From NCBI RefSeq assembly GCF_018390605.1, contig NZ_JAHBGD010000012.1, positions 154,226-218,225 on the forward strand: 64,000 nucleotides of DNA, given 5' to 3'. The notes under the pieces are model-generated. The model ran no database searches. It was not told where the DNA came from and saw nothing but the letters and a program-made list of their open reading frames with translations. Source of the DNA: Ancylobacter defluvii. GTDB lineage: Bacteria; Pseudomonadota; Alphaproteobacteria; Rhizobiales; Xanthobacteraceae. Positions within the stretch are counted from its first letter, which is position 1, and every line of letters begins with the position of its first letter. Positions 36,476-53,684 of the stretch are shown piece by piece. The position numbers were made by a program, and so were the translations under genes.

Positions 36476-36834
36476 GAGTCCCGGCCGGCGCCACCCGGCC
36501 CGTCTTTCTCCTGCAATCCATGCTGTCTCGACCCCTGCGTGCCGGGCGCGGCGGCGTATGAGCCCTTGGCCCGCCGGCGAACATTTTGCCCCCGTGCGTG
36601 GCAAAGTGTTCAGGCGCTCTCGCCATACGCCCTTCGCCGTGGTATATTGCATACGCAACGATGGAACGCAGGATGCCAAGGCCTCATAGAAGGCTGATCC
36701 ATCAACGATAATCGATGTGGGACGAGAAGCGCCGCGGTCTCCGCGGGTACGGGATCGCCGATTGACATGCTGGTATTTGGTATGCCAAATTTCGAAGAAA
36801 TCCCCGGCGGGCTCGGCCCGATGAGGATTTTCTC
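36476..36834. other. Intergenic region between the two gntR genes
   Basis: No gene is seen. It holds a weak operator-like sequence at 36640-36656 (TGGTAT-ATTGC-ATACGC), a consensus -35 box TTGACA at 36762-36767, and the strong operator at 36771-36787. Confidence 0.6.
36771..36787. promoter_or_regulatory. GntR-type operator in front of gntR copy 2
   Basis: TGGTATTTGGTATGCCA has the form TGGTAT-N5-ATGCCA and starts 4 bases after a perfect -35 hexamer (TTGACA, 36762-36767), in the promoter spacer, where a bound protein would block polymerase. Its reverse complement differs from the site at 48789 at one base of 17. Autoregulation by the gntR gene at 36835 is the simplest reading. Confidence 0.7.
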
Positions 36835-37560
36835 GTGAGTACGAAAGCGGCTTTGAACAAGAGGTGGCAGAGCGGTGACAATGGCCTGGCCATTGAGCGC
36901 CTGCCGGCGAAGGAGAGCTTCAAGAGCAGGGCTTATGCCGCTCTGAAGGAAGCCATCACCAACATGAATATCTACGGCTCGGACGAGCCGCTGCTGCTCG
37001 ATGAGCGAGACATTTCAGAGCGCCTTGGCGCGAGCCGCACGCCGATTCGCGAGGCCGTGGCGATGCTTGAGCAGGAAGGCCTGCTCAAGGCCGTGCCGAG
37101 ACGGGGTATTTTGGTTGTTCGCCGCACCAAGGCCGAGATGATCGAGATGATCGAGGCCTGGGCGGCACTGGAAAGCATGGCGGCTCGCCTCGCGACTTCT
37201 CGCGCAAGCGACGAGGCGATCGCCGAATTGAGGGCCTTTTTCAAGGAGTTCGATTTCAACCGGATCGAGCGCGAGCGGTGTGACGAATATTCGACCGCGA
37301 ATATCGCGTTCCACCAGGCGCTGATCCGGCTGAGCGGCTCCTCACTTCTCGCAGCGATGACGGACAACCTGTTCTTCCATGTTCGGGCCATCCGCCACCG
37401 CACGATCTTCGAGATGGACCGGGCGCAGCGTTCCGCCTCCGACCATCTCGAGATCATCCAGGCAATCGAGGCGCGGGACGCAGACCGCGCCGAGCGTTTG
37501 GTCCGTGACCACACGCTCCGGCTGGCGAGGCATGTCGAGAGCCACGTGAACCTTGACTAG
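36835..37560 (+). CDS. GntR-family regulator, FCD subgroup, copy 2
   Basis: A 241-residue paralogue of the protein at 35699, with the same winged helix (LLDERDISERLGASRTPIRE, EQEGLLKAVPRRGILVV) and FCD domain (TANIAFHQALIRL, ASDHLEIIQAI). GTG start after ATGAGGA. The recognition helices of both copies read SRTPIREA, so they may share operators. It is located directly upstream of oxc. Confidence 0.9.
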   Translation: MSTKAALNKRWQSGDNGLAIERLPAKESFKSRAYAALKEAITNMNIYGSDEPLLLDERDISERLGASRTPIREAVAMLEQEGLLKAVPRRGILVVRRTKAEMIEMIEAWAALESMAARLATSRASDEAIAELRAFFKEFDFNRIERERCDEYSTANIAFHQALIRLSGSSLLAAMTDNLFFHVRAIRHRTIFEMDRAQRSASDHLEIIQAIEARDADRAERLVRDHTLRLARHVESHVNLD

Positions 37561-37820
37561 AGCGGCGGACCCGCACGGCGCGGTTTGCCGACGGGGCCAG
37601 ACGACTCGGGACGTGAAGGCATGGGTAGAGATGGAATATGCGCGGCAGGCGTGTCGGCCTTTATGCCGGCCGTCGATCGCCAGCCGAGAGACCGCCGCCG
37701 GGGTGGCGCGATCCGTCGGCAATATTCCCTCGCCCCCTGCCTGGCTCCGGGTCCGATGGGTCCGACGTTCTGGTGATGATCTTCAAAAACGGCGCAGACA
37801 AGATTCCGGGAGGAAGCAAG

Positions 37821-39563
37821 ATGTCCGCAGTAGCACAGGTTATTGACACGAATTCGGCCATCGAGGCCGAGGTGGAGCTGACGGATGGCTTCCATCTCGT
37901 TATCGATGCTCTCAAACTGAACGGCATCGAGACCATTTATGGCGTGCCGGGCATTCCGATTACCGACCTTGGCCGCATGGCGCAGGCCGAGGGCATCCGG
38001 GTGATCTCGTTCCGCCACGAGCAGAACGCCGGTAACGCCGCCGCCATCGCCGGCTTCCTCACCAAGAAGCCCGGCATCTGCCTCACCGTCTCGGCGCCCG
38101 GCTTCCTGAACGGCTTGACCGCTCTCGCCAACGCGACGACCAACTGCTTCCCGATGATCCTCATCTCCGGCTCGTCCGAGCGCGAGATCGTCGACCTGCA
38201 GCAGGGCGACTATGAGGAGATGGACCAGCTCGCCATCGCCAAGCCGCTCTGCAAGGCCGCCTTCCGCGTGCTGCACGCCGAGGATATCGGCATCGGTGTC
38301 GCCCGCGCCATCCGCGCGGCGGTGTCCGGCCGTCCCGGCGGCGTCTATCTCGATCTGCCGGCCAAGCTGTTCTCGCAGGTGGTCGATGCCGAGAAGGGCG
38401 CCAAGTCGCTGGTGAAGGTCATCGACGCCGCTCCCGACCAGCTGCCCGCCCCGTCCGCGGTCGAGCGCGCCCTCGAGGTACTGAAGTCGGCGAAGAAGCC
38501 GCTGATCATCCTCGGCAAGGGCGCCGCCTATGCCCAGGCCGACGAGACCATCCGCGAGTTCATCGAGACCTCCGGCATTCCCTTCCTGCCGATGTCGATG
38601 GCCAAGGGCCTGCTGCCCGATACCCATCCGCTGTCGGCCGGCGCCGCCCGTTCGACGGTGCTGAAGGATTCGGACGTCGTCCTGCTCGTCGGCGCCCGCC
38701 TCAACTGGCTGCTGTCGCACGGCAAGGGCAAGACCTGGGGCGATGCGCCCAAGAAGTTCATCCAGGTCGACATCGAGCCGAAGGAAATGGACTCCAACGT
38801 CGAGATCGTCGCCCCGCTGGTCGGCGATATCGGCTCGGTGGTTTCCGCCCTGCTCGACGGCGTGAAGGCCGGCTGGACGGCTCCTTCCGATGCGTGGATC
38901 GGCGAGATCAAGGCGCGCAAGGAAGTGAACATCGCCAAGATGTCGCAGCGCCTGCTCAAGAACTCCACCCCGATGGACTTCCACTCGGCGCTCGGCGCGC
39001 TGAAGCAGGTGATCAAGGAGCGTCCCGACGCGATCCTGGTCAATGAGGGCGCCAACACCCTCGACCTCGCCCGTGGCGTCATCGACATGTACCAGCCGCG
39101 CAAGCGCCTGGACGTCGGCACCTGGGGCGTGATGGGCATCGGCATGGGCTTCGCCGTCGGCGCGGCGGTGGAGACCGGCAAGCCGGTGCTGGCGGTCGAG
39201 GGCGACAGCGCCTTCGGCTTCTCCGGCATGGAAGTCGAAACCATCTGCCGCTACGAGCTGCCGGTCTGCATCGTGGTGTTCAACAATAACGGCATCTATC
39301 GCGGCCTCGACACCGACCCGACCGGCCGCGATCCCGGCACCACCGTCTTCGTCAAGGGCTCGCGCTACGACAAGATGATGGAGGCCTTCGGGGGCGTCGG
39401 CTACAACGCCACCACCCCGGACGAGTTGAAGCGCTTCGTCGACGAGGCGATGAACTCCGGTCGCCCGACCCTCATCAACGCGGTCATCGACCCGGCGGCC
39501 GGCAGCGAGAGCGGCAATATCGGCAGCCTCAATCCGCAGAGCGTCGTCAAGAAGAAGAGCTGA
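37821..39563 (+). CDS. oxc: Oxalyl-CoA decarboxylase
   Basis: A 580-residue thiamin-diphosphate enzyme that splits oxalyl-CoA into formyl-CoA and CO2. The catalytic Glu is E67 in [13 protein letters not shown]; the ThDP/Mg motif starts at G461-D-S ([20 protein letters not shown]) and ends in [11 protein letters not shown]. Length and the segment [10 protein letters not shown] match known Oxc proteins. The start at 37821 follows GGGAGGAAG; the frame is open to 37638 upstream without support. It sits between gntR copy 2 and frc1. Confidence 0.96.
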
Positions 39564-39572
39564 TCCGACATT

Positions 39573-39602
39573 GGCGGGCGGAGACATCTCCGCCCGCCCT
39601 TT
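39573..39602 (+). terminator. Hairpin between oxc and frc1
   Basis: An 11-bp perfect stem (GGCGGGCGGAG at 39573-39583, CTCCGCCCGCC at 39588-39598, loop ACAT) followed by only CTTT. It may terminate part of the oxc transcripts or protect their 3' end. Confidence 0.5.
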
Positions 39603-39660
39603 AACGAAATGAAGCGCACCGGCGCAAACGTCGGGCACCACACTTTCGAGAGGAAACCCC

Positions 39661-40938
39661 ATGAGCAAGGCGCTGGACGGAGTCCGTATCCTAGATTTCA
39701 CCCATGTTCAGTCCGGCCCGACCTGCACCCAGCTCCTGGCCTGGTTCGGCGCCGACGTGATCAAGGTGGAACGCCCCGGCGAGGGCGATGTCACGCGGGC
39801 GCAGCTCCGCGATGTCCCGAACGCGGACAGCCTCTATTTCACCATGCTGAACTCGAACAAGCGGTCGATCACGCTCGACACCAAGAATCCCGAGGGCAAG
39901 AAGATCCTCGAGGAACTGGTGAAGATCTGCGACGTCATGGTCGAGAATTTCGCCCCCGGCGCGCTCGACCGCATGGGCTTCACCTGGGAGCGCATCCAGG
40001 AGCTCAACCCGCGCATCATCCTCGCCTCGGTGAAGGGCTTCGGCCCCGGCCCGTTCGAAGACTGCAAGGTCTATGAGAACGTCGCCCAGTGCACCGGCGG
40101 CTCCGCCTCCACCACCGGCTTCCGCGACGGCCTGCCGCTGGTCACCGCAGCGCAGATCGGCGATTCCGGCACCGGGCTGCATCTCGCCCTCGGCATCGTC
40201 ACCGCGCTCTACCAGCGCACCCTGACCGGCCGCGGCCAGAAGGTGCTGTGCGCCATGCAGGATTCGGTGCTGAACCTGTGCCGCGTCAAGCTGCGCGACC
40301 AGCAGCGCCTCGAGCGTGGCCCGCTGCGCGAATACAGCCAGTTCGGCGAGGGCATTCCCTTCGGCGACGCGGTGCCGCGCGCGGGCAATGATTCCGGCGG
40401 CGGCCAGCCGGGCCGCATCCTGCGCTGCAAGGGTTGGGAGACCGATCCCAACGCCTATATCTATTTCATCACCCAGGCGCCGGTCTGGGCCAAGATCTGC
40501 GATGTCATCCACGAGCCCGAGTGGAAGACCGATCCCAACTATGCGACGCCGGCCGCCCGCCTGCCGCATCTCAACGAGATCTTCACCCGCGTCGAAGCGT
40601 GGACCATGGCCCACACCAAGTTCGAGGCGATGGAGATCCTCAATAAATACGACATTCCCTGCGGCCCGGTGCTCTCCATGAAGGAGATCGCCGAGGACCG
40701 GTCGCTCTACGAGACCGGTACGCTGGTGGAGGTCGATCACCCGACGCGTGGCGCCTATCTGACCGTCGGCAACCCGATCAAGCTGTCGGACAACGACGTG
40801 CCGGTGGAGCGCTCGCCGCTGCTTGGCGAACACACCGAAGAAATCCTGGCGCAGGTGCTCGGTTTCGGCATCGACCGCATCGACGCCGTCAAGGCATCGG
40901 GCGCGGTGGGCGAGCCGGTGCGGCAGGCCGCCGAATAG
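39661..40938 (+). CDS. frc: Formyl-CoA transferase-like CoA-transferase, copy 1 (class III)
   Basis: A 425-residue class III CoA-transferase. The catalytic Asp is D168 ([10 protein letters not shown]), and [10 protein letters not shown] and KVERPG are present. Compared with copy 2 and with Oxalobacter Frc, pocket positions differ: TTGFWDGPP reads TTGFRDGLP, and the glycine loop GGGGQPG reads SGGGQPG. Gln48 replaces the Trp48 of the Oxalobacter enzyme, as in E. coli YfdW. It should move CoA between formate/oxalate or a related acid; the exact donor is open. It is 97 bases after oxc. Confidence 0.88.
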
Positions 40939-40952
40939 GCGCAGACGGATTT

Positions 40953-40976
40953 GCGCGGAGCTCCCCGGCTCCGCGC
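40953..40976 (+). terminator. Hairpin after frc copy 1
   Basis: A 9-bp stem (GCGCGGAGC at 40953-40961, GCTCCGCGC at 40968-40976) with a 6-base loop, 14 bases after the frc1 stop. No T tract follows, so it may be an RNA-stabilising or rho-dependent element. The rest of the 248-base gap before frc2 shows no gene. Confidence 0.35.
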
Positions 40977-41186
40977 CGCTAGACCTGAGGTGGCAGAAGA
41001 AGTCGTGAACGGTCGGATGTCCGTACTTCCGATGTCGAACACCACCTGGGACGTATTCCGCCGGTTCGCCGGCGGAGACGGGGAGACGGAGGCTCCTGAT
41101 ACCTGCGCGGGTAGGAGCTTAGTTCTACGGCACGCTCGGGAGAGCCGTCGTGCCGAACGAAACCGAATGAAGGGAAGTCGACAACG

Positions 41187-42437
41187 ATGTCTAAGCCGCT
41201 TGAAGGTATAAAGATCATCGATTTCACCCACGTCCAGGCGGGTCCCGCCTGCACCCAGCTTCTCGCCTGGTTCGGCGCCGACGTGATCAAGGTTGAGCGC
41301 CCCGGTGCGGGCGACGTCACGCGCAGCCAGCTTCGCCATGTGAAGGACGCCGATGCGCTGTACTTCACCATGCTGAACTCCAACAAGCGCTCCCTGACCC
41401 TGGACACCAAGACCCAGCAGGGCAAGGAAGTGCTGACCAAGCTCATCAAAGAGTCGGACGTCATGGTCGAGAATTTCGGCCCCGGCGCGCTCGATCGCAT
41501 GGGCTTCACCTGGCAGCACATCCAGGAGCTCAACCCGGGCATGATCCTCGCCTCGGTGAAGGGCTTCTCGGAAGGCCACGCCTATGAAGATCTGAAGGTG
41601 TACGAGAACGTCGCGCAGTGCGCTGGCGGCGCCGCCTCCACCACCGGCTTCTGGGACGGTCCCCCGACCGTGTCGGCCGCCGCGCTCGGTGACTCGAACA
41701 CCGGCATGCATCTCGCCATCGGCATCCTCACGGCGCTGCACCAGAAGATCAAGACCGGCAAGGGCCAGAAGGTCGCCGTGTCGATGCAGGATTCGGTGCT
41801 CAACCTCTGCCGCGTGAAGCTGCGCGACCAGCAGCGCCTCGACGCCCTCGGCTATCTGGAAGAGTATCCGCAGTACCCGCACGGCGAGTTCTCGGACGTG
41901 GTTCCGCGCGGCGGCAATGCCGGCGGCGGCGGCCAGCCGGGCTGGGTGCTGAAGTGCAAGGGTTGGGAGACCGACCCGAACGCCTACATCTACTTCACCG
42001 TACAGGGCCATGCCTGGGCGCCGATCTGCAAGGCGTTGAACAAGCCGGAGTGGATCGACGATCCGGCCTACAACACCGCCGAAGCCCGCCAGGACAAGAT
42101 CTTCGACATCTTCGCCTTCATCGAGAACTGGCTCTCGGACAAGACCAAGTTCGAAGCCATCGACATCCTGCGCAAGTTCGACATTCCCTGCGCGCCGGTG
42201 CTGTCGATGAAGGAGATCGCCAACGACCCGTCGCTGCGCAAGAGCGGCACCGTGGTCGAGGTCGATCACCCGAAGCTCGGCAAGTATCTGACCGTCGGCT
42301 CGCCGATCAAGTTCTCGGACGTCGAGGTCAGCATCACCGCCTCGCCGCTGCTCGGCCAGCACACCAATGAAGTGCTCGCCGACCTCGGCTACTCGCAGGA
42401 AGAGATTTCCGCCCTGCACGACGCCAAGGCGGTCTGA
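41187..42437 (+). CDS. frc: Formyl-CoA:oxalate CoA-transferase, copy 2
   Basis: A 416-residue class III CoA-transferase that makes oxalyl-CoA from oxalate and formyl-CoA. It keeps the Frc hallmarks: catalytic D169 at the same number as in the Oxalobacter enzyme ([10 protein letters not shown]), W156 in TTGFWDGPP, and the intact glycine loop GGGGQPGW. Gln48 is as in YfdW. This copy is therefore the better candidate for the true Frc of the pathway. The start follows GAAGGGA. Confidence 0.94.
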
Positions 42438-42797
42438 TCGGAACACCGGCCGGCGGCGGTTGCCGCCACGGCCATTTGAAGATCGGCGGCGCGCGCCTCG
42501 AGGCGTTGCGCCGCCCGCGAGCCTCCCGGAGCGGAGCGCTCTGGCGTCTGTTCCAGCCGGACAATCCGTCCGGTGCGCACAGCCACCCGACGTTCGGTTC
42601 CTCCTAGGCGACTGAGCCGGCGCATCCGGAGAGCGGGTGCGCCGGCCATTTTTTTCGCGGTTCCTGGTCGCAGATCACGGCACGCGCCGACGGCACCGCA
42701 TCCGGTCGAGCCCCGCTCAAGGCAAGCAACCGCCGCACTCTTGGCACGGTCCTCGACACCGGCGCGGCCGCATTGATCGCGGTCACTCAGATTGCCC
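42438..42797. other. Region downstream of frc2
   Basis: No gene is supported here. It contains a small GGCGGC/GCCGCC hairpin (42452-42467) and the strong terminator at 42616-42655. Confidence 0.5.
42616..42655 (+). terminator. Rho-independent terminator of the oxc-frc region
   Basis: A 12-bp stem (42616-42627 with 42635-42646, one G-U pair, 7-base loop) followed two bases later by seven T residues. It is 178 bases past the frc2 stop and closes the plus-strand oxc-frc1-frc2 block. Confidence 0.85.
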
Positions 42798-43550
42798 TTA
42801 CAGCGGCGGCAGCACCGCTGGCGCGGCGATCCTCGCCCGAGTCGGTGTGGCATGGGGGAAGCGCATTCTCACCCCGCCATCCGACATCGGCCCCGCCGTT
42901 CCACATTCGATCGCCGTGCCCGCCGCCGGTTCGAGCGCATAGAGGAAACAGGCCGGCAGCAGCGAAGGCAGTGCCAGCCGGCTGGCGGCAGCGAAGCCGC
43001 TGGGCATGAACGGCCGCTCCTGCTCCGGTGCGGCAAAGCTCGCGGCGGCGATCTCCGAGCCGCCGGCCCGGCAGCGCCGGCTGACCGGGAACGGTTCCCA
43101 GCGATAGACGACGGTGCCGGCCTGGCTGCGGGTGGCGAACGGCAATTGTCCGCCATCGGCCGGTGCGGTGGCGAGGCGGTTCGTCGCGCCCGATTCGGTG
43201 GGCGTCGCCACGCGCAGGCCGGCCTCGCTACCCAGCACGCCCGGCTCGGCGCCGCCGACCGGCCTCAGTTCCGGCGTCGGCCAGAGATAGTCGAGCCACT
43301 CCTCGAACAGCTCCTCGCGGCGCGGGCAGTCCGGCCGCAGCCAGGAGGATGTGAGATACGCCACCCGCTCGACCGGCTCGATGGGGGTGCCGATCTCCTC
43401 GACGGCGACCGCAACCTCGCCGCCGATCACCAGATAGGCCCGCTCATCGGCACCGACCGCCAGATGCAGTCCCATCCGCCATTCCGGCACCGCATCGAAC
43501 ACGGCAGGCCGACGAACCCTTAAAAGTTGCATATATATCGCGCGCCCCAC
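42798..43550 (-). CDS. Hypothetical protein
   Basis: A 250-codon frame on the minus strand between frc2 and iclR. Most codons end in G or C, as in neighbouring genes, and the sequence has natural amino acid composition, so it looks real. I do not recognise a domain. No signal peptide is seen; the start could be GTG 43550 or ATG 43532, and neither has a clear ribosome binding site. Its position just downstream of iclR on the same strand suggests co-transcription. Confidence 0.55.
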   Translation of the reverse strand: MGRAIYMQLLRVRRPAVFDAVPEWRMGLHLAVGADERAYLVIGGEVAVAVEEIGTPIEPVERVAYLTSSWLRPDCPRREELFEEWLDYLWPTPELRPVGGAEPGVLGSEAGLRVATPTESGATNRLATAPADGGQLPFATRSQAGTVVYRWEPFPVSRRCRAGGSEIAAASFAAPEQERPFMPSGFAAASRLALPSLLPACFLYALEPAAGTAIECGTAGPMSDGGVRMRFPHATPTRARIAAPAVLPPL

Positions 43551-43622
43551 CTAATGGTTGTAGCGCACGATAACCCGACCGCCTGCCGAGACAAGCGGAA
43601 TATTGGAAGAAACGCCGAATTC

Positions 43623-44441: not shown

Positions 44442-44775
44442 TTCCATCCTCCGCAGGCAACCGCGCGGCGGCAGCCGCCTTCCTAAAGGGTCGCCTTTAT
44501 CATAAAGGCGCAACTCCGATTTTTTCGCAAATCAGAAATACATCCCGTATTGCGGAAATGGGAGACCCGTGGCATGTTTTCCGCGATTTCGGAAATTCAT
44601 TCCGCAGTGCGGGAATAATGCTGCTCCGCAACATTGCCCGCGGCGGATTGGAAGGGAACCGACACCAAGGAACCGACACCTCGGCGCGGCGCTGCCGGCC
44701 CCGCATCGGCGGGGCGATGCCCACGCCGGGCGGATCGTCTGTCATGTCGCCAGAAGGTGGCGAGGAGGAATTGCC
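44442..44775. other. Divergent iclR-gcl regulatory region
   Basis: This 334-base gap holds the promoters of iclR and gcl and the IclR boxes at 44543-44615. No small gene is supported. Confidence 0.6.
44543..44615. promoter_or_regulatory. Three IclR-type operator boxes in front of gcl
   Basis: Three inverted repeats of the form TTCCG-N5/6-CGGAA: TCCCG-TATTG-CGGAA at 44543-44557, TTCCG-CGATTT-CGGAA at 44579-44594, and TTCCG-CAGTG-CGGGAA at 44600-44615. They lie between the divergent iclR and gcl genes and are best explained as binding sites of the IclR protein encoded at 43623. Confidence 0.7.
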
Positions 44776-46542
44776 ATGGCCAAGATGCGTGCCGTCGATG
44801 CTGCTATCCGGGTTCTCGAAAAGGAAGGCGTCAGCGTCGCCTTCGGCGTGCCGGGCGCCGCGATCAATCCGCTCTATTCCGCCATGCGCGCCCATGGGAA
44901 GACGCGCCATATCCTGGCGCGCCACGTCGAGGCCGCCTCGCACATGGCCGAGGGCTACACCCGCGCCAAGGCCGGCAATATCGGCGTGTGCATCGGCACC
45001 TCCGGCCCGGCCGGCACCGACATGATCACCGGCCTCTATTCGGCGGCGGCGGATTCGATCCCGATCCTGTGCATCACCGGCCAGGCGCCGCGCGCGCGGC
45101 TCTACAAGGAAGACTTCCAGGCGATCGACATCGAATCCATCGCCAAGCCGGTCGCGAAGTGGGCGGTGATGGTGCGTGAGCCGGCACTGGTGCCGATGGT
45201 GTTCCAGCAGGCCTTCCACGTCATGCGTTCCGGCCGTCCGGGCCCGGTGCTCATCGATCTGCCGATCGACGTCCAGCTCGCCGAGATCGAATTCGACGAG
45301 GACACCTACGCCCCGCTGGAAGTCTACAAGCCCAAGCTCACCCGCAAGCAGGCCGAGAAGGCCATTGCGATGCTGAACGAGGCCGAGCGCCCGCTCATCG
45401 TCTCCGGCGGCGGCATCATCAATGCGGATGCTTCCGACCTGCTGGTCGAGTTCGCCGAGCTCACCGGCGTTCCGGTCATCCCGACCCTGATGGGTTGGGG
45501 CACCATTCCCGACGACCATGATCTGATGGCCGGCATGTGCGGGCTTCAGACCTCGCACCGCTACGGCAACGCCAACATGCTGGCCTCGGACTTCGTGTTC
45601 GGCATCGGCAACCGCTGGGCCAATCGCCACACCGGCTCTGTGGACGTCTATACCAAGGGCCGCAAGTTCATCCATGTCGACATCGAGCCGACCCAGATCG
45701 GCCGCGTCTTCGGCCCGGATCTCGGCATCGTCTCCGACGCCGGCACTGCGCTGGAGCTCTTCATCGAGGTCGCCCGCGAATACAAGGCCGCCGGCAAGCT
45801 GAAGAACCGCTCGGCCTGGGCGAATGAGTGCCTCGGCCGCAAGAAGACCTTGCTGCGCAAGACGCATTTCGACAACGTGCCGCTCAAGCCGCAGCGCGTC
45901 TATGAGGAGATGAACGAGGCGTTCGGCCGCGATACCCGCTACGTCTCCACCATCGGCCTGTCGCAGATCGCCGGCGCGCAGATGCTGCACGTCTATAAGC
46001 CGCGCAACTGGATCAATTGCGGCCAGGCCGGCCCGCTCGGCTGGACGCTGCCGGCGGCACTGGGTGTCCGCGCGGCTGATCCGGATGCCGAGATCGTGGC
46101 GCTGTCGGGCGACTACGACTTCCAGTTCCTCATCGAGGAACTGGCGGTCGGCGCCCAGCACAAGCTGCCCTACATCCATGTGGTGGTGAACAACTCCTAT
46201 CTGGGCCTGATCCGTCAGGCGCAGCGCGGCTTCAACATGGATTTCGAGGTCTCGCTGGCCTTCGACAACATCAATGCCGAGGAGAATGCCGGTTACGGCG
46301 TCGACCACGTCGCGGTGGCGGAAGGTCTGGGCTGCAAGGCGGTTCGCGTCTCCTCGCCCAACGAGTTCAAGGATGCCTTCACCCGCGCCAAGGCGTTGAT
46401 GAAGGAGCACCAGGTGCCGGTGGTGATGGAGTTCATCCTCGAGCGCGTCACCAACATCGCCATGGGCATGGAGATCGACGCCGTCAACGAGTTCGAGGAA
46501 GTGCTCGACCTGCCGCTGGAGAGCGCCAAGGAAAACGCGTGA
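44776..46542 (+). CDS. gcl: Glyoxylate carboligase (tartronate-semialdehyde synthase)
   Basis: A 588-residue thiamin-diphosphate enzyme that joins two glyoxylate molecules to tartronate semialdehyde and CO2. The family's diagnostic change is present: V51 ([17 protein letters not shown]) stands where other ThDP enzymes have the catalytic Glu, at the same number as in E. coli Gcl. The ThDP motif is [19 protein letters not shown] ending in VVNNSYLG. The start at 44776 follows GAGGAGGAA. It is the first gene of gcl-hyi-glxR, behind the IclR boxes. Confidence 0.97.
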
Positions 46543-46692
46543 GCGTTCCGCGCGGGGACGCTTATCGCCCGGTAACGCCATGGTGGGGGCCGCGCGCCTC
46601 CACCTCTTGCGCGCGTCCCTGACGTGACGGCAAAGTGCCTGCCGTCGGCGCGGTTTCCATCCGGAGCCGGCCCCACGTCAAACGATTGAAAC

Positions 46693-46704
46693 GAAAACGT
46701 TTTC
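46693..46704. promoter_or_regulatory. LacI-type operator upstream of hyi
   Basis: GAAAACGTTTTC is a perfect 12-bp palindrome with the central CG typical of LacI/GalR-family operators. It sits 69 bases upstream of hyi in a 230-base gap after gcl. No LacI-family gene is in the window, so the regulator would be encoded elsewhere. Confidence 0.55.
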
Positions 46705-46772
46705 TTATCGATCCGGCGCTCCCGGCCGATCCGGGAGAGCTCAAAAATCCTGTCCCTGCCTAGGAGCGGTCC

Positions 46773-47558
46773 ATGCCCCGTTTTGCCGCCAATCTCACCA
46801 TGCTCTTCAACGAGGTGCCGTTTCTCGATCGCTTCGAGAAGGCCGCCGCGGCCGGCTTCACCGGCGTCGAATACCTCTTCCCCTATGATTTCCCGGTGGA
46901 AGAGCTGGTCGCCAAGCTGAAGGCCAACAATCTCAGCCAGGTGCTGCACAATCTGCCGGCCGGCAATTGGGGCGGCGGCGAGCGCGGCATCGCCATCTTC
47001 CCGGAGCGCGTCGACGAGTTCCGCGCCGGTGTCGACAAGGCGATCAGCTACGCCACCGCGCTCGGCTGCCCGCAGGTGAACATCCTCGCCGGCATCGTCC
47101 CCGCCGGAGCCGACCGCGAGCTACTGCACAACACCTTCGTGAACAATCTCAAATACGCCGCGCCGCGCATCAAGGAAGCCGGGCTGAAGCTGCTGATCGA
47201 GCCGATCAACACCCGCGACATCCCCGGCTTCTTCCTGAACTATACGAAGCAGGCCAAGGCGATCATCGAGGAGGTCGGCTCCGACAACCTCTTCATCCAG
47301 TACGATATCTATCATATGCAGATCATGGAGGGCGATCTCGCCCGCACCATCGAGGCTAACCTGCCGCTGATCGCCCATGTCCAGCTTGCCGACAATCCCG
47401 GCCGCAACGAGCCCGGCACCGGCGAGATCAATTACGGCTTCCTGTTCAAACATCTCGACGCCATCGGCTATGCCGGCTGGGTCGGCTGCGAATACAAGCC
47501 GAAGGGCGACACGGCGGCCGGCCTCGGCTGGATCTCGGCGCTCACCGGCGCCGCCTGA
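46773..47558 (+). CDS. hyi: Hydroxypyruvate isomerase
   Basis: A 261-residue xylose-isomerase-like TIM barrel that interconverts hydroxypyruvate and tartronate semialdehyde. Family features: MPRFAANLTMLFNE at the N-terminus, metal/catalytic Glu in LLIEPINTRD, and a second Glu in VGCEYKPKG. It lies between gcl and glxR in the standard glyoxylate-to-glycerate order. The 230-base gap before it holds a LacI-type operator, so it may have its own promoter. Confidence 0.94.
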   Translation: MPRFAANLTMLFNEVPFLDRFEKAAAAGFTGVEYLFPYDFPVEELVAKLKANNLSQVLHNLPAGNWGGGERGIAIFPERVDEFRAGVDKAISYATALGCPQVNILAGIVPAGADRELLHNTFVNNLKYAAPRIKEAGLKLLIEPINTRDIPGFFLNYTKQAKAIIEEVGSDNLFIQYDIYHMQIMEGDLARTIEANLPLIAHVQLADNPGRNEPGTGEINYGFLFKHLDAIGYAGWVGCEYKPKGDTAAGLGWISALTGAA

Positions 47559-47597
47559 TCACCATTCATTCGAAGTCTAGGACGCGAGGAAAATAAC

Positions 47598-48488
47598 ATG
47601 GCGAATGTAGGATTTGTCGGTCTTGGGATCATGGGCCACCCGATGGCCGGACACCTGATCGACGCCGGCCACACGCTGTATCTCTACGACATCAAGCCGG
47701 TTCCGGCCGAACTGACCGGCAAGGGCGGCGTCGCCTGCGCCAACGCCACCGAGGTGGCGAAGAATGCCGACATCATCATCACCATGGTGCCGGATACCCC
47801 GCATGTCGGCGCGGCGCTGTTCGGCGAGGGCGGCATCGCCGCCGGGCTGACCCCGGGCAAGATCGTCGTCGACATGTCGTCGATCGCCCCGGTGGAGACC
47901 AAGGAATACGCCAGGAAGATCAATGAACTCGGCTGCGACTATCTCGACGCCCCGGTGTCGGGCGGCGAGGTCGGCGCCAAGGCGGCGTCGCTGACCATCA
48001 TGGTCGGCGGCCCGGAGGCGGCCTTCGAGACGGTGAAGCCGCTGTTCGAGAAGATGGGCAAGAACATCACCTTGGTCGGCGGCAATGGCGACGGCCAGAC
48101 CACCAAGGTGGCCAACCAGATCATCGTGGCGCTGAACATTCTCGCGGTGTCGGAAGCGCTGCTGTTCGCCTCCAAGGCAGGGGCGGATCCGGCCAAGGTG
48201 CGGCAGGCGCTGATGGGCGGGTTTGCCAATTCGCGCATCCTGGAAGTGCATGGCGAGCGGATCGTCAAGCGGACCTTCGCGCCCGGCTTCCGCATCGAGC
48301 TGCACCAGAAGGACCTGAACCTGGCGCTGAACGGTGCGCGCCAGCTGCAGATGGCGCTGCCGGCGACGGCGGTGGCGCAGCAGCTGTTCAGCGCGGTGGC
48401 GGCACAGGGCGGTGCGGCGCTCGATCACTCGGCGCTGGTCAAGGCGCTGGAACTGCTCGCCGGCCACACCGTCGCACCGGATGCGTGA
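47598..48488 (+). CDS. glxR: 2-hydroxy-3-oxopropionate (tartronate semialdehyde) reductase
   Basis: A 296-residue beta-hydroxyacid dehydrogenase that reduces tartronate semialdehyde to glycerate with NAD(P)H. Visible: GFVGLGIMGHPMAGHL (nucleotide fold), DAPVSGGEVGA, and catalytic K170 in GQTTKVANQI. It lies 39 bases after hyi and finishes the gcl-hyi-glxR set. A glycerate kinase, needed for the next step, is not in the window. Confidence 0.95.
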   Translation: MANVGFVGLGIMGHPMAGHLIDAGHTLYLYDIKPVPAELTGKGGVACANATEVAKNADIIITMVPDTPHVGAALFGEGGIAAGLTPGKIVVDMSSIAPVETKEYARKINELGCDYLDAPVSGGEVGAKAASLTIMVGGPEAAFETVKPLFEKMGKNITLVGGNGDGQTTKVANQIIVALNILAVSEALLFASKAGADPAKVRQALMGGFANSRILEVHGERIVKRTFAPGFRIELHQKDLNLALNGARQLQMALPATAVAQQLFSAVAAQGGAALDHSALVKALELLAGHTVAPDA

Positions 48489-48555
48489 TTGATCATTCGC
48501 ATCACCCGGTCCGGTTTTCCAATCGGAATCCGTACCGTCAGATGAGTAAGCATTG

Positions 48556-48594
48556 CTGCCCCGGTAGTGGAACCCCACTGCCGGGGCAGTCTTT
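48556..48594 (+). terminator. Rho-independent terminator after glxR
   Basis: A 15-bp stem (48556-48570 with 48575-48589, one G-U pair, loop AACC) followed by TCTTTT. It ends the gcl-hyi-glxR transcription unit 68 bases past glxR. Confidence 0.85.
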
Positions 48595-48788
48595 TGATAG
48601 CATGCCGAGACAATTGTTCTGCGATTTACAACGCTTTACACGGTGGACAATACACCACCGCCTCGCTTAACTTGATTCACTGTTGGGAAATTTGCCCTCG
48701 CCTCGAATAAGCCGACGTAACGGCAGGCGCGACGTTTGCGCACGGGTGACCGAATGAGACTTGACGAAAGTCGTAGTGTGCCCAATCA

Positions 48789-48805
48789 TGGCATACAAAA
48801 TACCA
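48789..48805. promoter_or_regulatory. GntR-type operator upstream of the KPR-like gene
   Basis: TGGCATACAAAATACCA has the form TGGCAT-N5-ATACCA and is followed directly by GATAAT (48806-48811), a good -10 hexamer. It ends 53 bases before the ATG at 48859. Its reverse complement matches the operator at 36771 at 16 of 17 positions. Confidence 0.7.
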
Positions 48806-48858
48806 GATAATGACGTCCGCGATGTACGGGGGTCGACGCGGACAATGGAGGGAGCCCT

Positions 48859-49836
48859 ATGAAGGTCTGCATTTATGGTGCCGGCGCCATCGGCGGTTAT
48901 GTCGGCGTGCAGCTGAAGCGCGCTGGCGTCGACGTCAGCCTGGTCGCGCGCGGCCCGCATCTCGAAGCCATGAAGGCCAATGGCCTGAAGCTGATCATCG
49001 ATGGCGAGGAGCGTGTCGAGCACATCGCCTGCTCGGACAACCCCGCTGATCTCGGCCCGCAGGACTATGTCATCGTCGCGCTGAAGGGCCATTCGGTCCC
49101 CGGCGTGGTCGATGCCATGCAGCCGCTGCTCGGCAACGACACCGCGGTGGTCACCGCCGTCAACGGCGTGCCCTACTGGTACTATTACAAGCATGGCGAC
49201 CAGCTCGAAGGCACCACGCTGGAAAGCGTCGACCCCGGCGGCAAGCAGTGGAAGGGCCTGCGCCCCGAGCGCGCCATCGGCTGCATCGTCTATCCGGCGA
49301 CGGAAGTGGTGGCGCCGGGCGTCATCCAGCACGTCTATGGCGACAAGTTCCCGCTCGGCGAGCCCTCGGGCGAGATCACCGAGCGCGTCACCAAGCTCTC
49401 CGAGGCCTTCGCCGCCGGCGGCCTGCGCGCGCCGGTGATGCCGAACATCCGCGACGAGCTGTGGCTGAAGCTGTGGGGCAATCTCTGCTTCAACCCGATC
49501 AGCGCCCTCACCCACGCGACCCTCGACACCATCGCCTCCGATCCCGGCACCCGCGCGGTCGCCAAGTCGATGATGCTGGAAGCGCAGGAGATCGCCGTGC
49601 AGTCGGGGGTTAACTTCCGCGTCGGCGTCGAGCGCCGCATTGACGGCGCCGGCGCCGTCGGCGCCCACAAGACCTCGATGCTGCAGGACCTGGAGCGGTC
49701 CCGCGCCATGGAGATCGACCCGCTCGTCACCGTGGTGCAGGAAATGGGACGCCTTGCCGGCATCCCGACCCCGACCATCGACATCGTGCTGGCTCTGGTG
49801 CGTCAGCGCGCCCAGATCGCCGGCTGCTACAGCTGA
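48859..49836 (+). CDS. Ketopantoate reductase-family protein (ApbA/PanE fold)
   Basis: A 325-residue NADP-dependent 2-oxoacid reductase of the ApbA/PanE family: nucleotide-binding GAGAIGGYVG at residues 7-16, the conserved catalytic Lys region (NIRDELWLKLWGNLCFNPIS), and a C-terminal helical domain (GAHKTSMLQDLERSRAMEID). True PanE makes pantoate; the position in a glyoxylate/oxalate island and a regulon-specific operator suggest a different 2-oxoacid, perhaps hydroxypyruvate or a C3/C4 relative. The start follows GGAGGGAG. It is followed by the FAH-family gene 11 bases on. Confidence 0.82.
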   Translation: MKVCIYGAGAIGGYVGVQLKRAGVDVSLVARGPHLEAMKANGLKLIIDGEERVEHIACSDNPADLGPQDYVIVALKGHSVPGVVDAMQPLLGNDTAVVTAVNGVPYWYYYKHGDQLEGTTLESVDPGGKQWKGLRPERAIGCIVYPATEVVAPGVIQHVYGDKFPLGEPSGEITERVTKLSEAFAAGGLRAPVMPNIRDELWLKLWGNLCFNPISALTHATLDTIASDPGTRAVAKSMMLEAQEIAVQSGVNFRVGVERRIDGAGAVGAHKTSMLQDLERSRAMEIDPLVTVVQEMGRLAGIPTPTIDIVLALVRQRAQIAGCYS

Positions 49837-49847
49837 GTTTCGCGTAA

Positions 49848-50621
49848 ATGGCACATTGGGTTCGTTTCGAGCACTCGGGCGGCGCCGGCTTCGGTACGCT
49901 CGAGGGCGACAGCATCGCCGTCCACACCGGCAACATGTTCAATGGCGCGCAGCCGGCCGGGGAGAGCCTCGCGCTGTCCTCGGTAAAGCTGCTCACCCCG
50001 ACGGTTCCGACCAAGATCATCGCCCTGTGGAACAATTTCCATGCCTTGGCGGCGAAGCTGAATTCCCCCGTCCCCGCCGATCCGCTCTATCTGCTCAAGG
50101 CCGGCTCCTGCCTCACCACGCCGGGCGCGGAAGTGCGTCGCCCGGCGAGCTATGACGGCAAGGTGGTCTATGAGGGCGAGCTCGGCATCGTCATCGGCAA
50201 GACCGCGACCAACGTCTCCGAGGAAGAAGCCGGCGCGCACATCTTCGGCTACACCTGCGTCAACGACATCACCGCCGCCGACATCATCAACAAGGACGCC
50301 ACCTTCGCCCAGTGGGTGCGCGCCAAGAGCTTCGACGGCTTCGGCCCGTTCGGCCCCGTCGTCGCCACCGATGTCGACCCCGCCACGCTGGTGGTGCGTA
50401 CCATCCTCAATGGCGACGAGCGTCAGCGCTATCCGATCAGCGACATGGTGTTCTCGGCCCGCCAGCTGGTCAGCCGCATCTCGCACGACATGACGCTCAA
50501 CCCCGGCGATGTCATCTGCTGCGGCACCTCGCTCGGCGTCGGCACCATGAAGAACCCCACCAACACGGTGGAAATCACGATTGAGGGCATCGGAACCCTC
50601 AGCAACACTTTCGTGCAGTAG
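49848..50621 (+). CDS. Fumarylacetoacetate hydrolase-family protein
   Basis: A 257-residue FAH-fold protein. The metal triad is visible as E-x-E in [11 protein letters not shown] and the later Asp in NDITAADI. Family members hydrolyse, isomerise or decarboxylate 2-oxoacids (acylpyruvases, oxaloacetate decarboxylase, HpcE-like isomerases). The substrate here is unknown. It has a weak ribosome binding site, and lies 11 bases after the KPR-like gene, so translation is probably coupled. Confidence 0.85.
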
Positions 50622-50721
50622 CGTCTGGACGCGGCAGCGCGTAATAGGGAAAACGGATACGCCTATCGACGGGAGCGCTTGTCCGCGCTCCCGGCCGTCC
50701 GGTTGTGGAGGAGCGGGATTA

Positions 50722-51920
<1,199 letters not shown>

Positions 51921-51921
<1 letters not shown>

Positions 51922-52817
51922 TGTCGGTTCTGCTGACCAAAGACACCAAGATCATCACCCAGGGCTTCACCGGCAAGAACGGCACCTTCCACTCCGAGCA
52001 GGCGATCGCCTATGGCTCGAAGGTGGTCGGCGGCACCTCGCCGGGCAAGGGCGGCTCCACCCATCTCGGCCTGCCGGTGTTCGACACCGTCGCCGAGGCG
52101 CGTGACAAGACCGGCGCCGACGCCTCGGTCATCTATGTGCCGCCTCCGGGCGCCGCCGACGCCATCTGCGAGGCCATATCCGCCGAGATCCCGCTGATCG
52201 TCTGCATCACCGAGGGCATTCCGGTGCTCGACATGGTGAAGGTGCGCCGCGCCCTCGACGGCTCCAAGTCGCGCCTCGTCGGCCCGAACTGCCCGGGCAT
52301 CGTCACCGCCGGCGAATCGAAGATCGGCATCATGCCGGCCAACATCTTCAAGAAGGGCAATGTCGGCATCGTCTCGCGCTCTGGCACGCTGACCTATGAG
52401 GCGGTGTTCCAGACCTCGCAGGAAGGCCTCGGCCAGACCACCGCGGTCGGCATTGGCGGCGATCCGGTGAAGGGCACCGAGTTCATCGACGTGCTCGAGC
52501 TGTTCCTCGCCGACGACGCCACCGAGTCGATCGTGATGATCGGCGAGATCGGCGGCTCGGCGGAAGAGGAAGCCGCGCAGTTCCTCAAGGACGAGGCCAA
52601 GCGCGGCCGCAAGAAGCCGATGGTCGGCTTCATCGCCGGCCGCACCGCCCCTCCCGGCCGCCGCATGGGCCATGCCGGCGCCATCATCTCCGGCGGCAAG
52701 GGCGGCGCCGAGGACAAGATCGCGGCGATGGAAGAGGCCGGCATCGTGGTCTCCCCCTCCCCGGCCCGTCTCGGCAAGACCCTGGTCGAGGTGCTGAACA
52801 AGCGCGCCGCCGCCTGA
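51921..52817 (+). CDS. sucD: Succinyl-CoA synthetase alpha subunit
   Basis: A 298-residue CoA-binding subunit. Seen: [26 protein letters not shown], and the phospho-His loop with H251 ([15 protein letters not shown]). It forms a heterodimer or heterotetramer with SucC. In this island it could supply succinyl-CoA as CoA donor for oxalate activation by a Frc-type transferase; that link is inference from context. AAGGAGG precedes the start inside sucC. Confidence 0.92.
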
Positions 52818-52866
52818 GTCGGCAAGCTCCGGCCAGCGACACCGTCGCCGGCCCCGCCTGAAACGA

Positions 52867-52898
52867 GAAAGCCCCGCTCCGATGCGGGGCTTTCTTCG
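52867..52898 (+). terminator. Rho-independent terminator after sucD
   Basis: A perfect 11-bp stem (GAAAGCCCCGC at 52867-52877, GCGGGGCTTTC at 52884-52894) with a 6-base loop, followed by TTCGTTTTC. It ends the block that begins with the KPR-like gene. Confidence 0.85.
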
Positions 52899-53055
52899 TT
52901 TTCGGCCTCCTTGGGCGTTATACAGGCCGGGCGAATGACGGCCCGCCGACACAAGCGGGGCTTCCGCTCGGAACCATGCCGGCCCCGGACCATTCTTCCT
53001 CACAGCCGTCCGCTCCCGTCAGGGTACGGGACGCGCCGCGATGGGAGAACCGGCC

Positions 53056-53388
53056 ATGCCGAAATTCGTGACGATCGGATATGGCGACCGTGAGGGTTAC
53101 GAGCGCATCGCTCCTGCCCTGCGCGACGTCGCGCATGCACATGACGAAAAGCTCCGCCGCGACGGCGCGCTGATGGGCATAGCCGGTCCGCCCGTCCAGT
53201 TGCGCAACCCGGAGGCGGCGCGGCTGGAGGCCACCGACGGCGCCTTCATGTCGTCCGCTCTGCCGGTCGCCGGCTTTGCGGTGATCGAGGCCGCCGACAT
53301 GGCGCAGGCTATCCGGCTGGTGTCGCTCACACCATGCGCGGTGGCCCATGGGGTAGTCGAGATCTGGCCGCTGAAGGACAATAGCTGA
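53056..53388 (+). CDS. YciI-like (YCII/DGPF domain) protein
   Basis: A 110-residue small soluble protein resembling the YCII-related fold (ferredoxin-like dimer): N-terminal strand KFVTIGYGD, central ATDGAFMSSALPVAGFAVIEA, and a final strand GVVEIWPL. Function of this family is mostly unknown. The ATG at 53056 has GGGAGAACC upstream; an in-frame ATG at 53041 is less likely. The stop codon is inside the first unit of a 15-bp tandem repeat. Confidence 0.7.
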   Translation: MPKFVTIGYGDREGYERIAPALRDVAHAHDEKLRRDGALMGIAGPPVQLRNPEAARLEATDGAFMSSALPVAGFAVIEAADMAQAIRLVSLTPCAVAHGVVEIWPLKDNS

Positions 53389-53425
53389 GGACGCCGCAGC
53401 TGAGGGCGCCGCAGCTGAGGGCGCC
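53383..53425 (+). repeat. 15-bp tandem repeat at the end of the YciI-like gene
   Basis: The unit AGCTGAGG(A/G)CGCCGC occurs at 53383-53397, 53398-53412 and, truncated, 53413-53425. The stop codon of the YciI-like gene is inside unit 1. Likely replication slippage. Confidence 0.7.
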
Positions 53426-53479
53426 TCCTGTGCCGATCGATGGATTCTGTTGCGGCGAGCGCCCGTACGGCCAGCGGCC

Positions 53480-53611
53480 TCAGATCGGGTAAGCTTCCGG
53501 CGGCAGGGTGGCGAGTTCCGCCTCGGCCGAAAGCGTCTGCGCCACCATGAACGTCATCCAGGCGTGAGCCAGGATCAGGGCCGGCAGAACCGGGAAAACC
53601 GACGCGAACAT
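53480..53611 (-). CDS. Orphan 43-residue membrane peptide
   Basis: A 43-residue frame starting MFASVFPVLPALILAH with one predicted membrane helix (about residues 4-24) and a short acidic tail ending PPEAYPI. The ATG at 53611 has a strong GGAGG site 6 bases upstream. The operator at 53668-53684 lies 56 bases upstream of the start, the same spacing (53 bases) as the operator has to the KPR-like gene at 48859. This shared arrangement supports a real, regulated gene. No known small-protein family is recognised. Confidence 0.55.
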   Translation of the reverse strand: MFASVFPVLPALILAHAWMTFMVAQTLSAEAELATLPPEAYPI

Positions 53612-53667
53612 ATGTGCCTCCATAGCGCTGTCTCTTGTCGAGCAACGTAATGGAGGCACTTTGTATC

Positions 53668-53684
53668 TGGTATACCACATGCCA
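53668..53684. promoter_or_regulatory. GntR-type operator upstream of the 43-residue peptide
   Basis: On the minus strand the site reads TGGCAT-GTGGT-ATACCA and continues GATACAA, as the site at 48789 continues GATAATG. It includes the perfect 10-bp palindrome TGGTATACCA. A half-site (TTTGGTATAAGG) lies at 53722-53733. The only gene reading away from it is the small ORF at 53480-53611. Confidence 0.65.

What the first reader, a model, noticed from the sequence alone, without database searches (positions are those of the whole stretch)
36771..53684. A 17-bp operator, TGGCAT-N5-ATACCA, defines a small undescribed regulon in the oxalate/glyoxylate island
The same 17-bp inverted repeat occurs at 36771-36787 (upstream of gntR copy 2), 48789-48805 (upstream of the KPR-like gene) and 53668-53684 (upstream of the 43-residue peptide). 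The first two differ at one base of 17 when aligned on opposite strands. All three are followed by G after ATACCA, and the last two continue GATA, overlapping a -10 region. Weaker versions are at 36640-36656, 35650-35655 and 35476-35482 (half-sites). The half-sites TGGTA/TACCA fit FCD-type GntR regulators (PdhR and LldR sites also contain TGGT/ACCA), and two such regulators are encoded inside the island.
Basis: partly seen in the sequence, partly recalled or inferred. Interest (0 to 1): 0.75.

Follow-up and report, generated by a model that had tools for sequence, protein, structure and literature searches.

The report
Conserved operator controlling bacterial oxalate use
A short DNA switch sequence placed in front of oxalate-degrading genes in a soil bacterium is real, kept nearly letter for letter in many related bacteria, and most likely marks where GntR-type repressor proteins turn oxalate use on and off.

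Summary
The three TGGCAT-N5-ATACCA sites are real and are the only exact copies in the 5.28-Mb Ancylobacter-type genome (0.14 expected). The motif model needs correcting. N5 is not free; in one orientation the sites read TKGYAT-N-TKGTATRCCA, a 10-bp palindrome (TGGTATRCCA) plus a third half-site 7 bp away. The gntR2 site is identical in 13 of 13 Ancylobacter-clade loci fetched by protein, and the KPR 17-mer is in 25 of 25 same-genus genomes. The 43-residue peptide, with an operator 68-77 bp upstream, is in 18 of 18 genus genomes examined. In the class, the motif (<=1 mismatch) lies upstream of oxalyl-CoA decarboxylase (oxc) in 41 of 53 loci examined, against 0 of 10 in other classes; reversed and downstream controls give 0 of 63. 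Unseeded motif discovery on 25 genera returns the same 17-mer. KPR is probably the oxalyl-CoA reductase PanE2, so the operator marks both fates of oxalyl-CoA. Another site, beside an mmgR-type sRNA outside the island, is kept in 25 of 30 genus genomes. Best reading: operator of FCD-GntR autorepressors of oxalate catabolism. Binding and expression were not tested, and GntR-site association across oxc loci is not significant by locus (p = 0.11).

The parts
36771..36787 (+). Operator O1, TGGTATTTGGTATGCCA; starts 64 bp before the gntR2 start (GTG 36835) and 4 bp after an invariant TTGAC (-35-like, 36762-36766), so lies in the spacer/-10 region
   Evidence: 0 mismatches; identical in 13 of 13 Ancylobacter-clade loci fetched by GntR2 protein; same 17-mer in 24 of 25 same-genus genomes; TTGAC invariant in 14 aligned rows
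36640..36656 (+). Second operator O2, TGGTATATTGCATACGC, centre 131 bp from O1; overlaps a promoter-like -10 TATATT (36643-36648)
   Evidence: TGGTAT..T..ATAC and a CTCGCCA box upstream invariant in 14 aligned regions; promoter-like hit 36620-36648 (number of hits not above shuffles)
48789..48805 (-). Operator of the KPR (PanE2-type) genes, TGGTATTTTGTATGCCA on the - strand; starts at the last base of a -10-like AATCAT with TTGACG 17 bp upstream
   Evidence: 0 mismatches; same 17-mer in 25 of 25 same-genus genomes, about 11-13 kb from the gntR2 17-mer in the 21 where both lie on one contig; promoter-like hit 48761-48789
53661..53684 (.). 24-bp double operator, two overlapping 17-mers in 7-bp register around TGGTATACCA, upstream of the 43-aa peptide
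   Evidence: 18 of 24 letters symmetric; operator at <=2 mismatches 68-77 bp before the peptide start in 18 of 18 genomes examined
35463..35481 (.). TGCAAAATTTTGCATACCA, conserved element of the oxlT-gntR1 intergenic region; possible variant operator
   Evidence: TGCAAAATTTTGYATRCCA in 12 of 12 aligned loci, 2 of the 14 available having dropped out
35643..35659 (+). Weak site TGGTCTGTGGTATACGA upstream of gntR1
   Evidence: 2 mismatches; only partly conserved
35774..36475 (+). GntR1, FCD-type GntR regulator
   Evidence: PF00392 and PF07729; groups with the f18/Methylobacterium regulators, support 100/97
36835..37560 (+). GntR2, FCD-type GntR regulator
   Evidence: PF00392 and PF07729; groups with regulators of g40 and other families, support 96/84
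37821..39563 (+). oxc, oxalyl-CoA decarboxylase
   Evidence: TIGR03254, 1024 bits, cut-off 739
39661..40938 (+). frc, formyl-CoA:oxalate CoA-transferase
   Evidence: PF02515; the name frc rests on its place beside oxc, kept in other genomes
34029..35327 (-). oxlT, oxalate/formate MFS antiporter
   Evidence: TIGR04259, 680 bits, cut-off 335
48859..49836 (+). KPR-like gene, probably PanE2-type oxalyl-CoA reductase
   Evidence: PF02558/PF08546; 47-50% identical to homologues in genus g66 (f18), five of six beside FAH and oxlT homologues; panE2 function from passages of PMC7486775 and PMC12686821
49848..50621 (+). FAH-family hydrolase downstream of KPR
   Evidence: PF01557
50722..52817 (+). sucC/sucD-like CoA ligase subunits (50722-51921, 51921-52817)
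   Evidence: NF001913 and NF004230
53480..53611 (-). 43-residue hydrophobic peptide, no Pfam or NCBIfam match
   Evidence: found in 18 of 18 genus genomes examined, own included; one further same-genus genome (G122) had no match in the first search

Best explanation
The 17-mer is the operator of one or both FCD-type GntR proteins of the island (GntR1, GntR2), members of a family of oxalate regulators spread through the Alphaproteobacteria. A dimer sits on the 10-bp palindrome TGGTATRCCA; the extra half-site 7 bp away probably recruits a second subunit or dimer side by side. At gntR2 and KPR the operator overlaps the apparent promoter, so the bound protein most likely blocks RNA polymerase. It would repress its own gene, the gntR2-oxc-frc genes (oxidation of oxalyl-CoA to formyl-CoA), the KPR/PanE2 genes (reduction of oxalyl-CoA to glyoxylate) and a small membrane peptide. 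Two operators 80-131 bp apart at several oxc promoters suggest a DNA loop. An oxalate-derived ligand (oxalate, oxalyl-CoA or glyoxylate) would release it. Shown here: the sites, their conservation, their positions, and their association with oxc. Inferred: which protein binds, repression, oligomer state, looping, ligand, operon extents and the panE2 identity.
For: Corrected motif (refined after seeing those sites): 13 hits at <=2 mismatches against 3 for the reversed control. 41 genomes: 63 exact matches in the 25 same-genus genomes (own included) and 6 in 3 of 16 others; control 0 in all 41. Identical 17-mer in 13 of 13 Ancylobacter-clade gntR2-upstream regions, between divergent gntR and oxc in Methylobacterium Leaf108 and between divergent gntR and frc in two g66 genomes. 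oxc survey, own locus included: site at <=1 mismatch in 41 of 63 upstream regions; reversed 0 of 63, downstream 0 of 63, rough shuffles 18 of 620; 0 of 10 in other classes. None of the 10 sub-cut-off oxc relatives has it at <=1 mismatch (one has two 2-mismatch hits). Unseeded EM on 25 genera gives TGGTATTTGGTATGCCA. All 7 genomes with the site but no GntR in the fetched locus have a 51-58% homologue elsewhere; the 3 tested of 5 class loci with neither have none. KPR orthologues of 60% identity or more: a 1-mismatch site within 1.5 kb upstream in 6 of 11; the 19 weaker homologues examined: 0. Precedents: 10-bp palindromes, promoter overlap and looping for Atu1419 (PMC7797058, passages); side-by-side NanR dimers on GGTATA repeats (PMC8012715, passages).
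Against: No binding or expression data. Across the 53 class loci, a GntR in the locus and a site at <=1 mismatch are not significantly associated (34 of 41 with, 7 of 12 without; p = 0.11). Seven GntR-oxc loci lack the site at <=1 mismatch (one, L093, has it at 2; in L099 only 8 bases before the GntR were available). Three genomes of another class (f259) hold a 53-55% GntR homologue without the site at oxc, though one has a looser site 237 bp before that GntR. The motif also occurs in front of a distant FCD-GntR on contig C2, so it is not proof of one regulator. In four of the six KPR orthologues with a site, another small reading frame lies between site and KPR. The gcl-hyi-glxR genes have no site. 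Promoter-like hits are no more than chance in number.
Confidence: 0.8

Rival explanations
1. The operator is bound mainly by one regulator (GntR1, GntR2 or the third paralogue GntR3 on contig C10), the others serving different genes or only cross-binding.
For: Three paralogues about 54-56% identical in the genome; GntR3 lies downstream of a TctC-type receptor gene that has a related site upstream. Three g66 genomes hold a single such homologue, of the GntR1 clade, while genus g40 loci hold the GntR2 clade, and both go with the same 17-mer.
Against: The SRTPIREA recognition-helix segment is identical in GntR1 and GntR2, and both clades go with the same operator, so exclusive use by one is not required.
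Confidence: 0.4
2. The regulator activates from these sites (bound form switches genes on) instead of repressing.
For: The mmgR-side site lies 78 bp upstream of the sRNA, a position more usual for an activator of that RNA.
Against: At gntR2 the site starts 4 bp after the -35-like TTGAC and at KPR at the end of the -10-like hexamer, which would hinder polymerase.
Confidence: 0.12
3. The mmgR-side site serves a different FCD-GntR or a divergent transcript and has nothing to do with oxalate.
For: Similar motifs stand before other FCD-GntRs (C2 site). A terminator-like hairpin lies on the other side of the site in the 11 sequences folded, which I picked out of 25 because they looked alike. Outside the genus only 1 of 30 mmgR loci has a site at <=1 mismatch.
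Against: GGCATACCARATAC is kept at this place in 25 of 30 genus genomes; the one mmgR copy outside the genus with a 1-mismatch site has it in the same orientation, 64 bp upstream, in a genome that also has oxc and KPR sites.
Confidence: 0.45
4. The repeats are chance or composition effects.
For: At <=3 mismatches the original pattern is only slightly over shuffles.
Against: Exact copies, cross-genus identity and reversed controls.
Confidence: 0.01

Closest known systems
Atu1419 (FCD/VanR-type GntR, Agrobacterium fabrum; PMC7797058, passages seen)
   Same: FCD-GntR repressor on 10-bp palindromes with a GTATAC core overlapping promoter elements; two sites 109 or 190 bp apart; an FCD GntR, 6z74, is the second-best solved-structure match of GntR2 (that this entry is Atu1419 is recalled)
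   Different: Its sites are lone ATGTATACAT; here TGGTATRCCA with a third half-site 7 bp away; different genes and ligand
NanR (E. coli; PMC8012715, passages seen)
   Same: GntR-type repressor using repeats of GGTATA bound by neighbouring dimers; NanR needs a 32-residue N-terminal extension, and the HTH match of GntR2 also starts at residue 32
   Different: Direct repeats, sialic acid regulon; GntR1 and GntR2 score 67 and 66 bits against the NanR cut-off of 260
FadR-subfamily TKGT/ACMA motifs (Suvorova et al. 2015, PMC4494728, passages seen)
   Same: TKGT...ACMA boxes, 2-nt GT-AC spacing known for some groups
   Different: Extra 7-bp-spaced half-site; 'oxal' and 'glyoxylate' do not occur in its held main text
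M. extorquens panE2 oxalyl-CoA reductase (PMC7486775 and PMC12686821, passages seen)
   Same: CoA-acylating glyoxylate dehydrogenase; in C. necator a homologue lies near frc-oxc
   Different: No regulator or operator for it in the passages seen
mmgR/suhB sRNA, RF00519 (PMC7143759, PMC8401924, passages seen)
   Same: The genome has three mmgR copies in a row
   Different: S. meliloti mmgR is described as under NtrC and AniA; no GntR control in the passages seen

Membership tests
FCD-type (FadR-subfamily) GntR regulators, GntR1 and GntR2 | N-terminal GntR winged HTH (PF00392) | tested here: met
   45.6 and 42.6 bits, cut-off 27
FCD-type (FadR-subfamily) GntR regulators, GntR1 and GntR2 | C-terminal FCD domain (PF07729) | tested here: met
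   99.7 and 85.2 bits, cut-off 24.3
FCD-type GntR operator | TKGT...ACMA boxes with GT-AC 2-3 nt apart | tested here: met
   TKGTATRCCA core in the seven window and genome sites compared; consensus from PMC4494728 passages
FCD-type GntR operator | Bound by the cognate protein | not testable with these tools
   needs EMSA or footprinting
NanR | NanR model score above its curated cut-off | tested here: not met
   66.9 and 66.4 bits, cut-off 260
Named equivalogs (LldR, PdhR, GlcC, CsiR, PhnR) | Score above the NCBIfam equivalog cut-off | tested here: not met
   every family listed for GntR1 (16) and GntR2 (12) is below its cut-off
PanE2-type oxalyl-CoA reductase (KPR gene) | KPR domains and close relation to the Methylobacterium enzyme | tested here: inconclusive
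   PF02558/PF08546; 47-50% identity to homologues in genus g66, but the characterised panE2 sequence was not at hand
PanE2-type oxalyl-CoA reductase (KPR gene) | Oxalyl-CoA reducing activity | not testable with these tools
   needs enzyme assay
mmgR sRNA (RF00519) | Covariance-model score over gathering threshold | tested here: met
   62.7, 67.2 and 67.4 bits, threshold 41, three copies in L048

The most novel reading that the evidence does not exclude
An FCD-GntR family conserved across Alphaproteobacteria reads a three- or four-half-site operator and sets the whole fate of oxalate (oxidation by oxc-frc, assimilation through PanE2). In Ancylobacter it also controls an mmgR-type small RNA locus, or a divergent small RNA beside it, tying oxalate supply to carbon storage.
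Probability: 0.35. Interest if true: 0.65.

Novelty: new member of a known kind. Interest (0 to 1): 0.5.

Why it matters
Oxalate is a large plant- and fungus-derived carbon pool in soil. The enzymes of oxalotrophy are known, but none of the papers shown in the listings has a title or opening abstract about a transcriptional regulator or operator of oxc-frc (the listings showed only the top 0-25 of up to 1,205 papers, and subscription papers are mostly not held). A motif that recurs at oxc in 19 of 25 genera sampled in the class gives a directly testable regulator, a way to spot true oxalate genes among ketopantoate-reductase and CoA-transferase look-alikes, and candidates (peptide, small RNA) not tied to oxalate in what I saw.

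Tried and rejected
Rejected: the free-spacer model TGGCAT-N5-ATACCA (its five middle positions carry 0.3, 1.3, 0.8, 1.5 and 0.6 bits in the de novo motif; positions 8, 10 and 11 are invariant and position 9 is G in 6 of 7 window/genome sites). Rejected: GATA after ATACCA as a conserved -10. The 43-aa peptide has no match in Pfam or NCBIfam at E <= 0.001 nor in plasmid records at E <= 1. Not settled: other low-mismatch genome sites. C5:210687 lies upstream of a 113-aa gene and C21:257978 upstream of a gene with NAD-binding oxidoreductase and PAS domains; their conservation was not tested. C12, C24, C5:40966 and C19 hits were fetched but not pursued. The mmgR link outside the genus: 30 loci examined of a longer list of matches in 18 genomes; 1 has a site at <=1 mismatch, 2 at <=2, reversed control 0.

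Limits of the counts. The oxc survey used 63 distinct loci: all 20 over-cut-off loci, all 29, and the 30 best-scoring of the 80 places; most of the other 50 places were not examined. The set leans to genus g40. One genus label (L094) was mistyped in my scripts as g123 instead of g122; the counts do not change. The KPR alignment was picked by the exact 17-mer, so its invariance there is by construction; the independent figure is 25 of 25 genomes. One search returned 15 loci: 13 of the Ancylobacter clade, Methylobacterium Leaf108 (17-mer present, 312 bp from the match start, opposite strand) and a 31% relative in a Solobacterium MAG (no site at <=3 mismatches). L032-L044 and G001-G024 overlap in species. 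The peptide regions were chosen by known sites or by distance from the KPR site; 3 of the 18 operators have 2 mismatches, 15 have 0 or 1. In one search, two of 13 loci (L035, L037) fell out through my coordinate filter. In one search one peptide row (L088) was read on the wrong strand; corrected. The shuffles swap bases between equal neighbours, a rough dinucleotide control; the EM was not run on shuffles. The 11 sequences were chosen from 25. Papers: PMC8305402, the one listed paper holding all three terms, has oxc/frc and two unrelated GntR table rows in the passages seen. Koch et al. 2014 on Bradyrhizobium oxalotrophy (PMC3993136) is not held, so not seen.

Full report
What was checked. The window is G000:C4:154226-218225. 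The nearest named genomes holding the same gntR2 are Ancylobacter species, 97-98% identical in that protein.

What the motif is. The pattern TKGYATNTGGTATRCCA, refined after seeing the sites, occurs five times exactly in the genome and twice with one mismatch; at <=2 mismatches there are 13 hits against 3 for the reversed control. The central TGGTATRCCA is a 10-bp palindrome; a third half-site TKGYAT lies 7 bp before it. At 53661-53684 half-sites flank both sides, giving two overlapping 17-mers. An expectation-maximisation search started from 260 random places on one oxc or gntR upstream region from each of 25 genera of the class returned TGGTATTTGGTATGCCA as its best motif; 21 of 25 regions scored 19 bits or more. 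It was not run on shuffled input.

Conservation in the genus. The gntR2 site is identical in 13 of 13 Ancylobacter-clade loci fetched by protein similarity. With it an ATTGAC just upstream is invariant in the 14 aligned regions; a second site 131 bp further up keeps TGGTAT..T..ATAC, and a CTCGCCA box is kept before it. In 25 same-genus genomes (own included) the KPR 17-mer is found in 25 and the gntR2 17-mer in 24, about 11-13 kb apart in the 21 where both are on one contig; the reversed pattern gives nothing in 41 genomes. The 43-residue peptide occurs in 18 of 18 genus genomes examined, each with an operator (15 at 0-1 mismatch, 3 at 2) starting 68-77 bp before its start codon, and the site letters vary within the motif. 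A first search had found it in 6 of 149 family genomes at E <= 0.01, missing one listed same-genus genome, G122. The peptide is best conserved in its first 20 residues, with HAWMT changed in three genomes.

Conservation beyond the genus. oxc was sought in 385 genomes of the class, 397 of the order and 398 of the phylum. Of 63 distinct oxc loci examined, 41 have the 17-mer at <=1 mismatch upstream, own included; the reversed pattern and the downstream sequence give 0 of 63, rough shuffles 18 of 620. All 41 are among the 53 loci of the class; the 10 from other classes have none. By genus, 19 of 25 in the class have it. The 10 sub-cut-off relatives of oxc have none at <=1 mismatch. In Methylobacterium Leaf108 the same 17-mer lies between divergent gntR and oxc; in two g66 genomes it lies between divergent gntR and frc. 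Two sites 80-131 bp apart are seen at oxc in genera g40, g41 and g42, in f126 and f172 genomes and here, some of the second sites being weaker.

The likely reader. GntR1 and GntR2 both have GntR and FCD domains and score below the cut-offs of every named family listed. In a tree of 64 sequences, midpoint-rooted, GntR1 groups with the f18/Methylobacterium regulators (100/97) and GntR2 with those of g40 and other families (96/84); together they form one group (99/97), and both go with the same operator. The seven genomes with the site but no GntR in the fetched locus all have a 51-58% homologue elsewhere, and three of the five class loci with neither were tested and their genomes have none. Against this, GntR in the locus and the site are not significantly associated across the 53 class loci (p = 0.11), seven GntR-oxc loci lack the site at <=1 mismatch, and three f259 genomes of another class have the homologue without the site at oxc, one of them with a looser site before that GntR.

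The genes. oxc and oxlT are clear, frc by domain and place. The KPR gene belongs to the ketopantoate reductase family; M. extorquens panE2 is described as the CoA-acylating glyoxylate dehydrogenase, i.e. oxalyl-CoA reductase (PMC7486775 and PMC12686821, passages; that panE2 belongs to the ketopantoate reductase family is recalled). The KPR gene is 47-50% identical to homologues in genus g66, five of six of which lie beside FAH and oxlT homologues. Outside Ancylobacter, a 1-mismatch operator lies 314-725 bp upstream of 6 of 11 KPR orthologues of 60% identity or more, and of none of the 19 weaker homologues examined; in four of the six a 142-148-aa reading frame lies between site and KPR, perhaps the first gene of the operon. 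So the operator marks both branches from oxalyl-CoA. The gcl-hyi-glxR genes between them have no site at <=2 mismatches.

How it most likely works. By analogy with Atu1419 (10-bp palindrome, promoter overlap, looping; PMC7797058, passages) and NanR (side-by-side dimers on GGTATA repeats through an N-terminal extension; PMC8012715, passages), a GntR1/GntR2 dimer would bind the palindrome, a neighbour the third half-site, and polymerase would be excluded. Ligand, oligomer and direction of control are inferences.

An arm outside the island. A site at C4:7347, about 184 kb from the gntR2 site, lies 78 bp upstream of an mmgR-type sRNA (RF00519). At the same place 25 of 30 genus genomes have it at <=2 mismatches; two more have a 1-mismatch site at another mmgR copy, one a 2-mismatch site elsewhere, two none. 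Outside the genus 1 of 30 mmgR loci has a 1-mismatch site, in the same orientation 64 bp upstream. On the other side of the site a hairpin with compensatory changes and a T-rich end is found in 11 sequences that I chose out of 25, so a divergent RNA is possible. In S. meliloti mmgR limits PHB granules and is under NtrC and AniA (PMC7143759, PMC8401924, passages). Whether the oxalate regulator acts here is open.

Verdict. Six literature searches showed no title or opening abstract on an oxalate GntR operator; their listings were capped, one likely paper is not held, and regulon databases were not searched. Filed as a new member of a known kind.

Noticed in passing
L048 7190-7269, 8856-8932, 9209-9287 (own genome, contig C4): Three mmgR/suhB (RF00519) sRNA copies in a row between an N-formylglutamate amidohydrolase gene and the next long reading frame; the first carries the operator on its upstream side.
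   Followed up: yes
L048 about 7364-7490 and same place in L170-L187: Possible divergent small RNA opposite mmgR: GGCATTAATGCC-like box and a terminator-like hairpin with compensatory changes (28 predicted pairs, 9 with two-sided changes, 11 chosen sequences).
   Followed up: partly
window 53480-53611 (-): 43-residue hydrophobic peptide, HAWMT core in most genomes, kept in the genus, no family match; could be a small partner of a transporter.
   Followed up: partly
L049 8235-8251 and 12189-12911: Third paralogue GntR3 (54-55% to GntR1/2) some 2.6 kb behind a TctC-type receptor gene, with a related site upstream of that gene.
   Followed up: partly
L047 6620-6636: Motif copy directly upstream of a distant FCD-GntR, divergent from a FAH-hydrolase gene: other FCD-GntRs may use near-identical sites.
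   Followed up: partly
window 48719-48740 and homologous places in L060-L080: A second box upstream of KPR, GCGACGTATTATCACG or close to it in the 11 relatives shown, degraded in this genome.
   Followed up: no
L231 2387-2403: In an f259 genome of another class, TTGTATATGGTATATCA lies upstream of a GntR homologue next to KPR and frc homologues: the system may reach beyond the class in looser form.
   Followed up: no
L038: Record titled Bosea sp. 117 carries the Ancylobacter-type island and groups with Ancylobacter regulators; the name may be wrong.
   Followed up: no
G924:C1:2173244-2173317: A below-threshold mmgR-like match (38.8 bits) about 1.8 kb downstream of oxc in one g40 genome.
   Followed up: no
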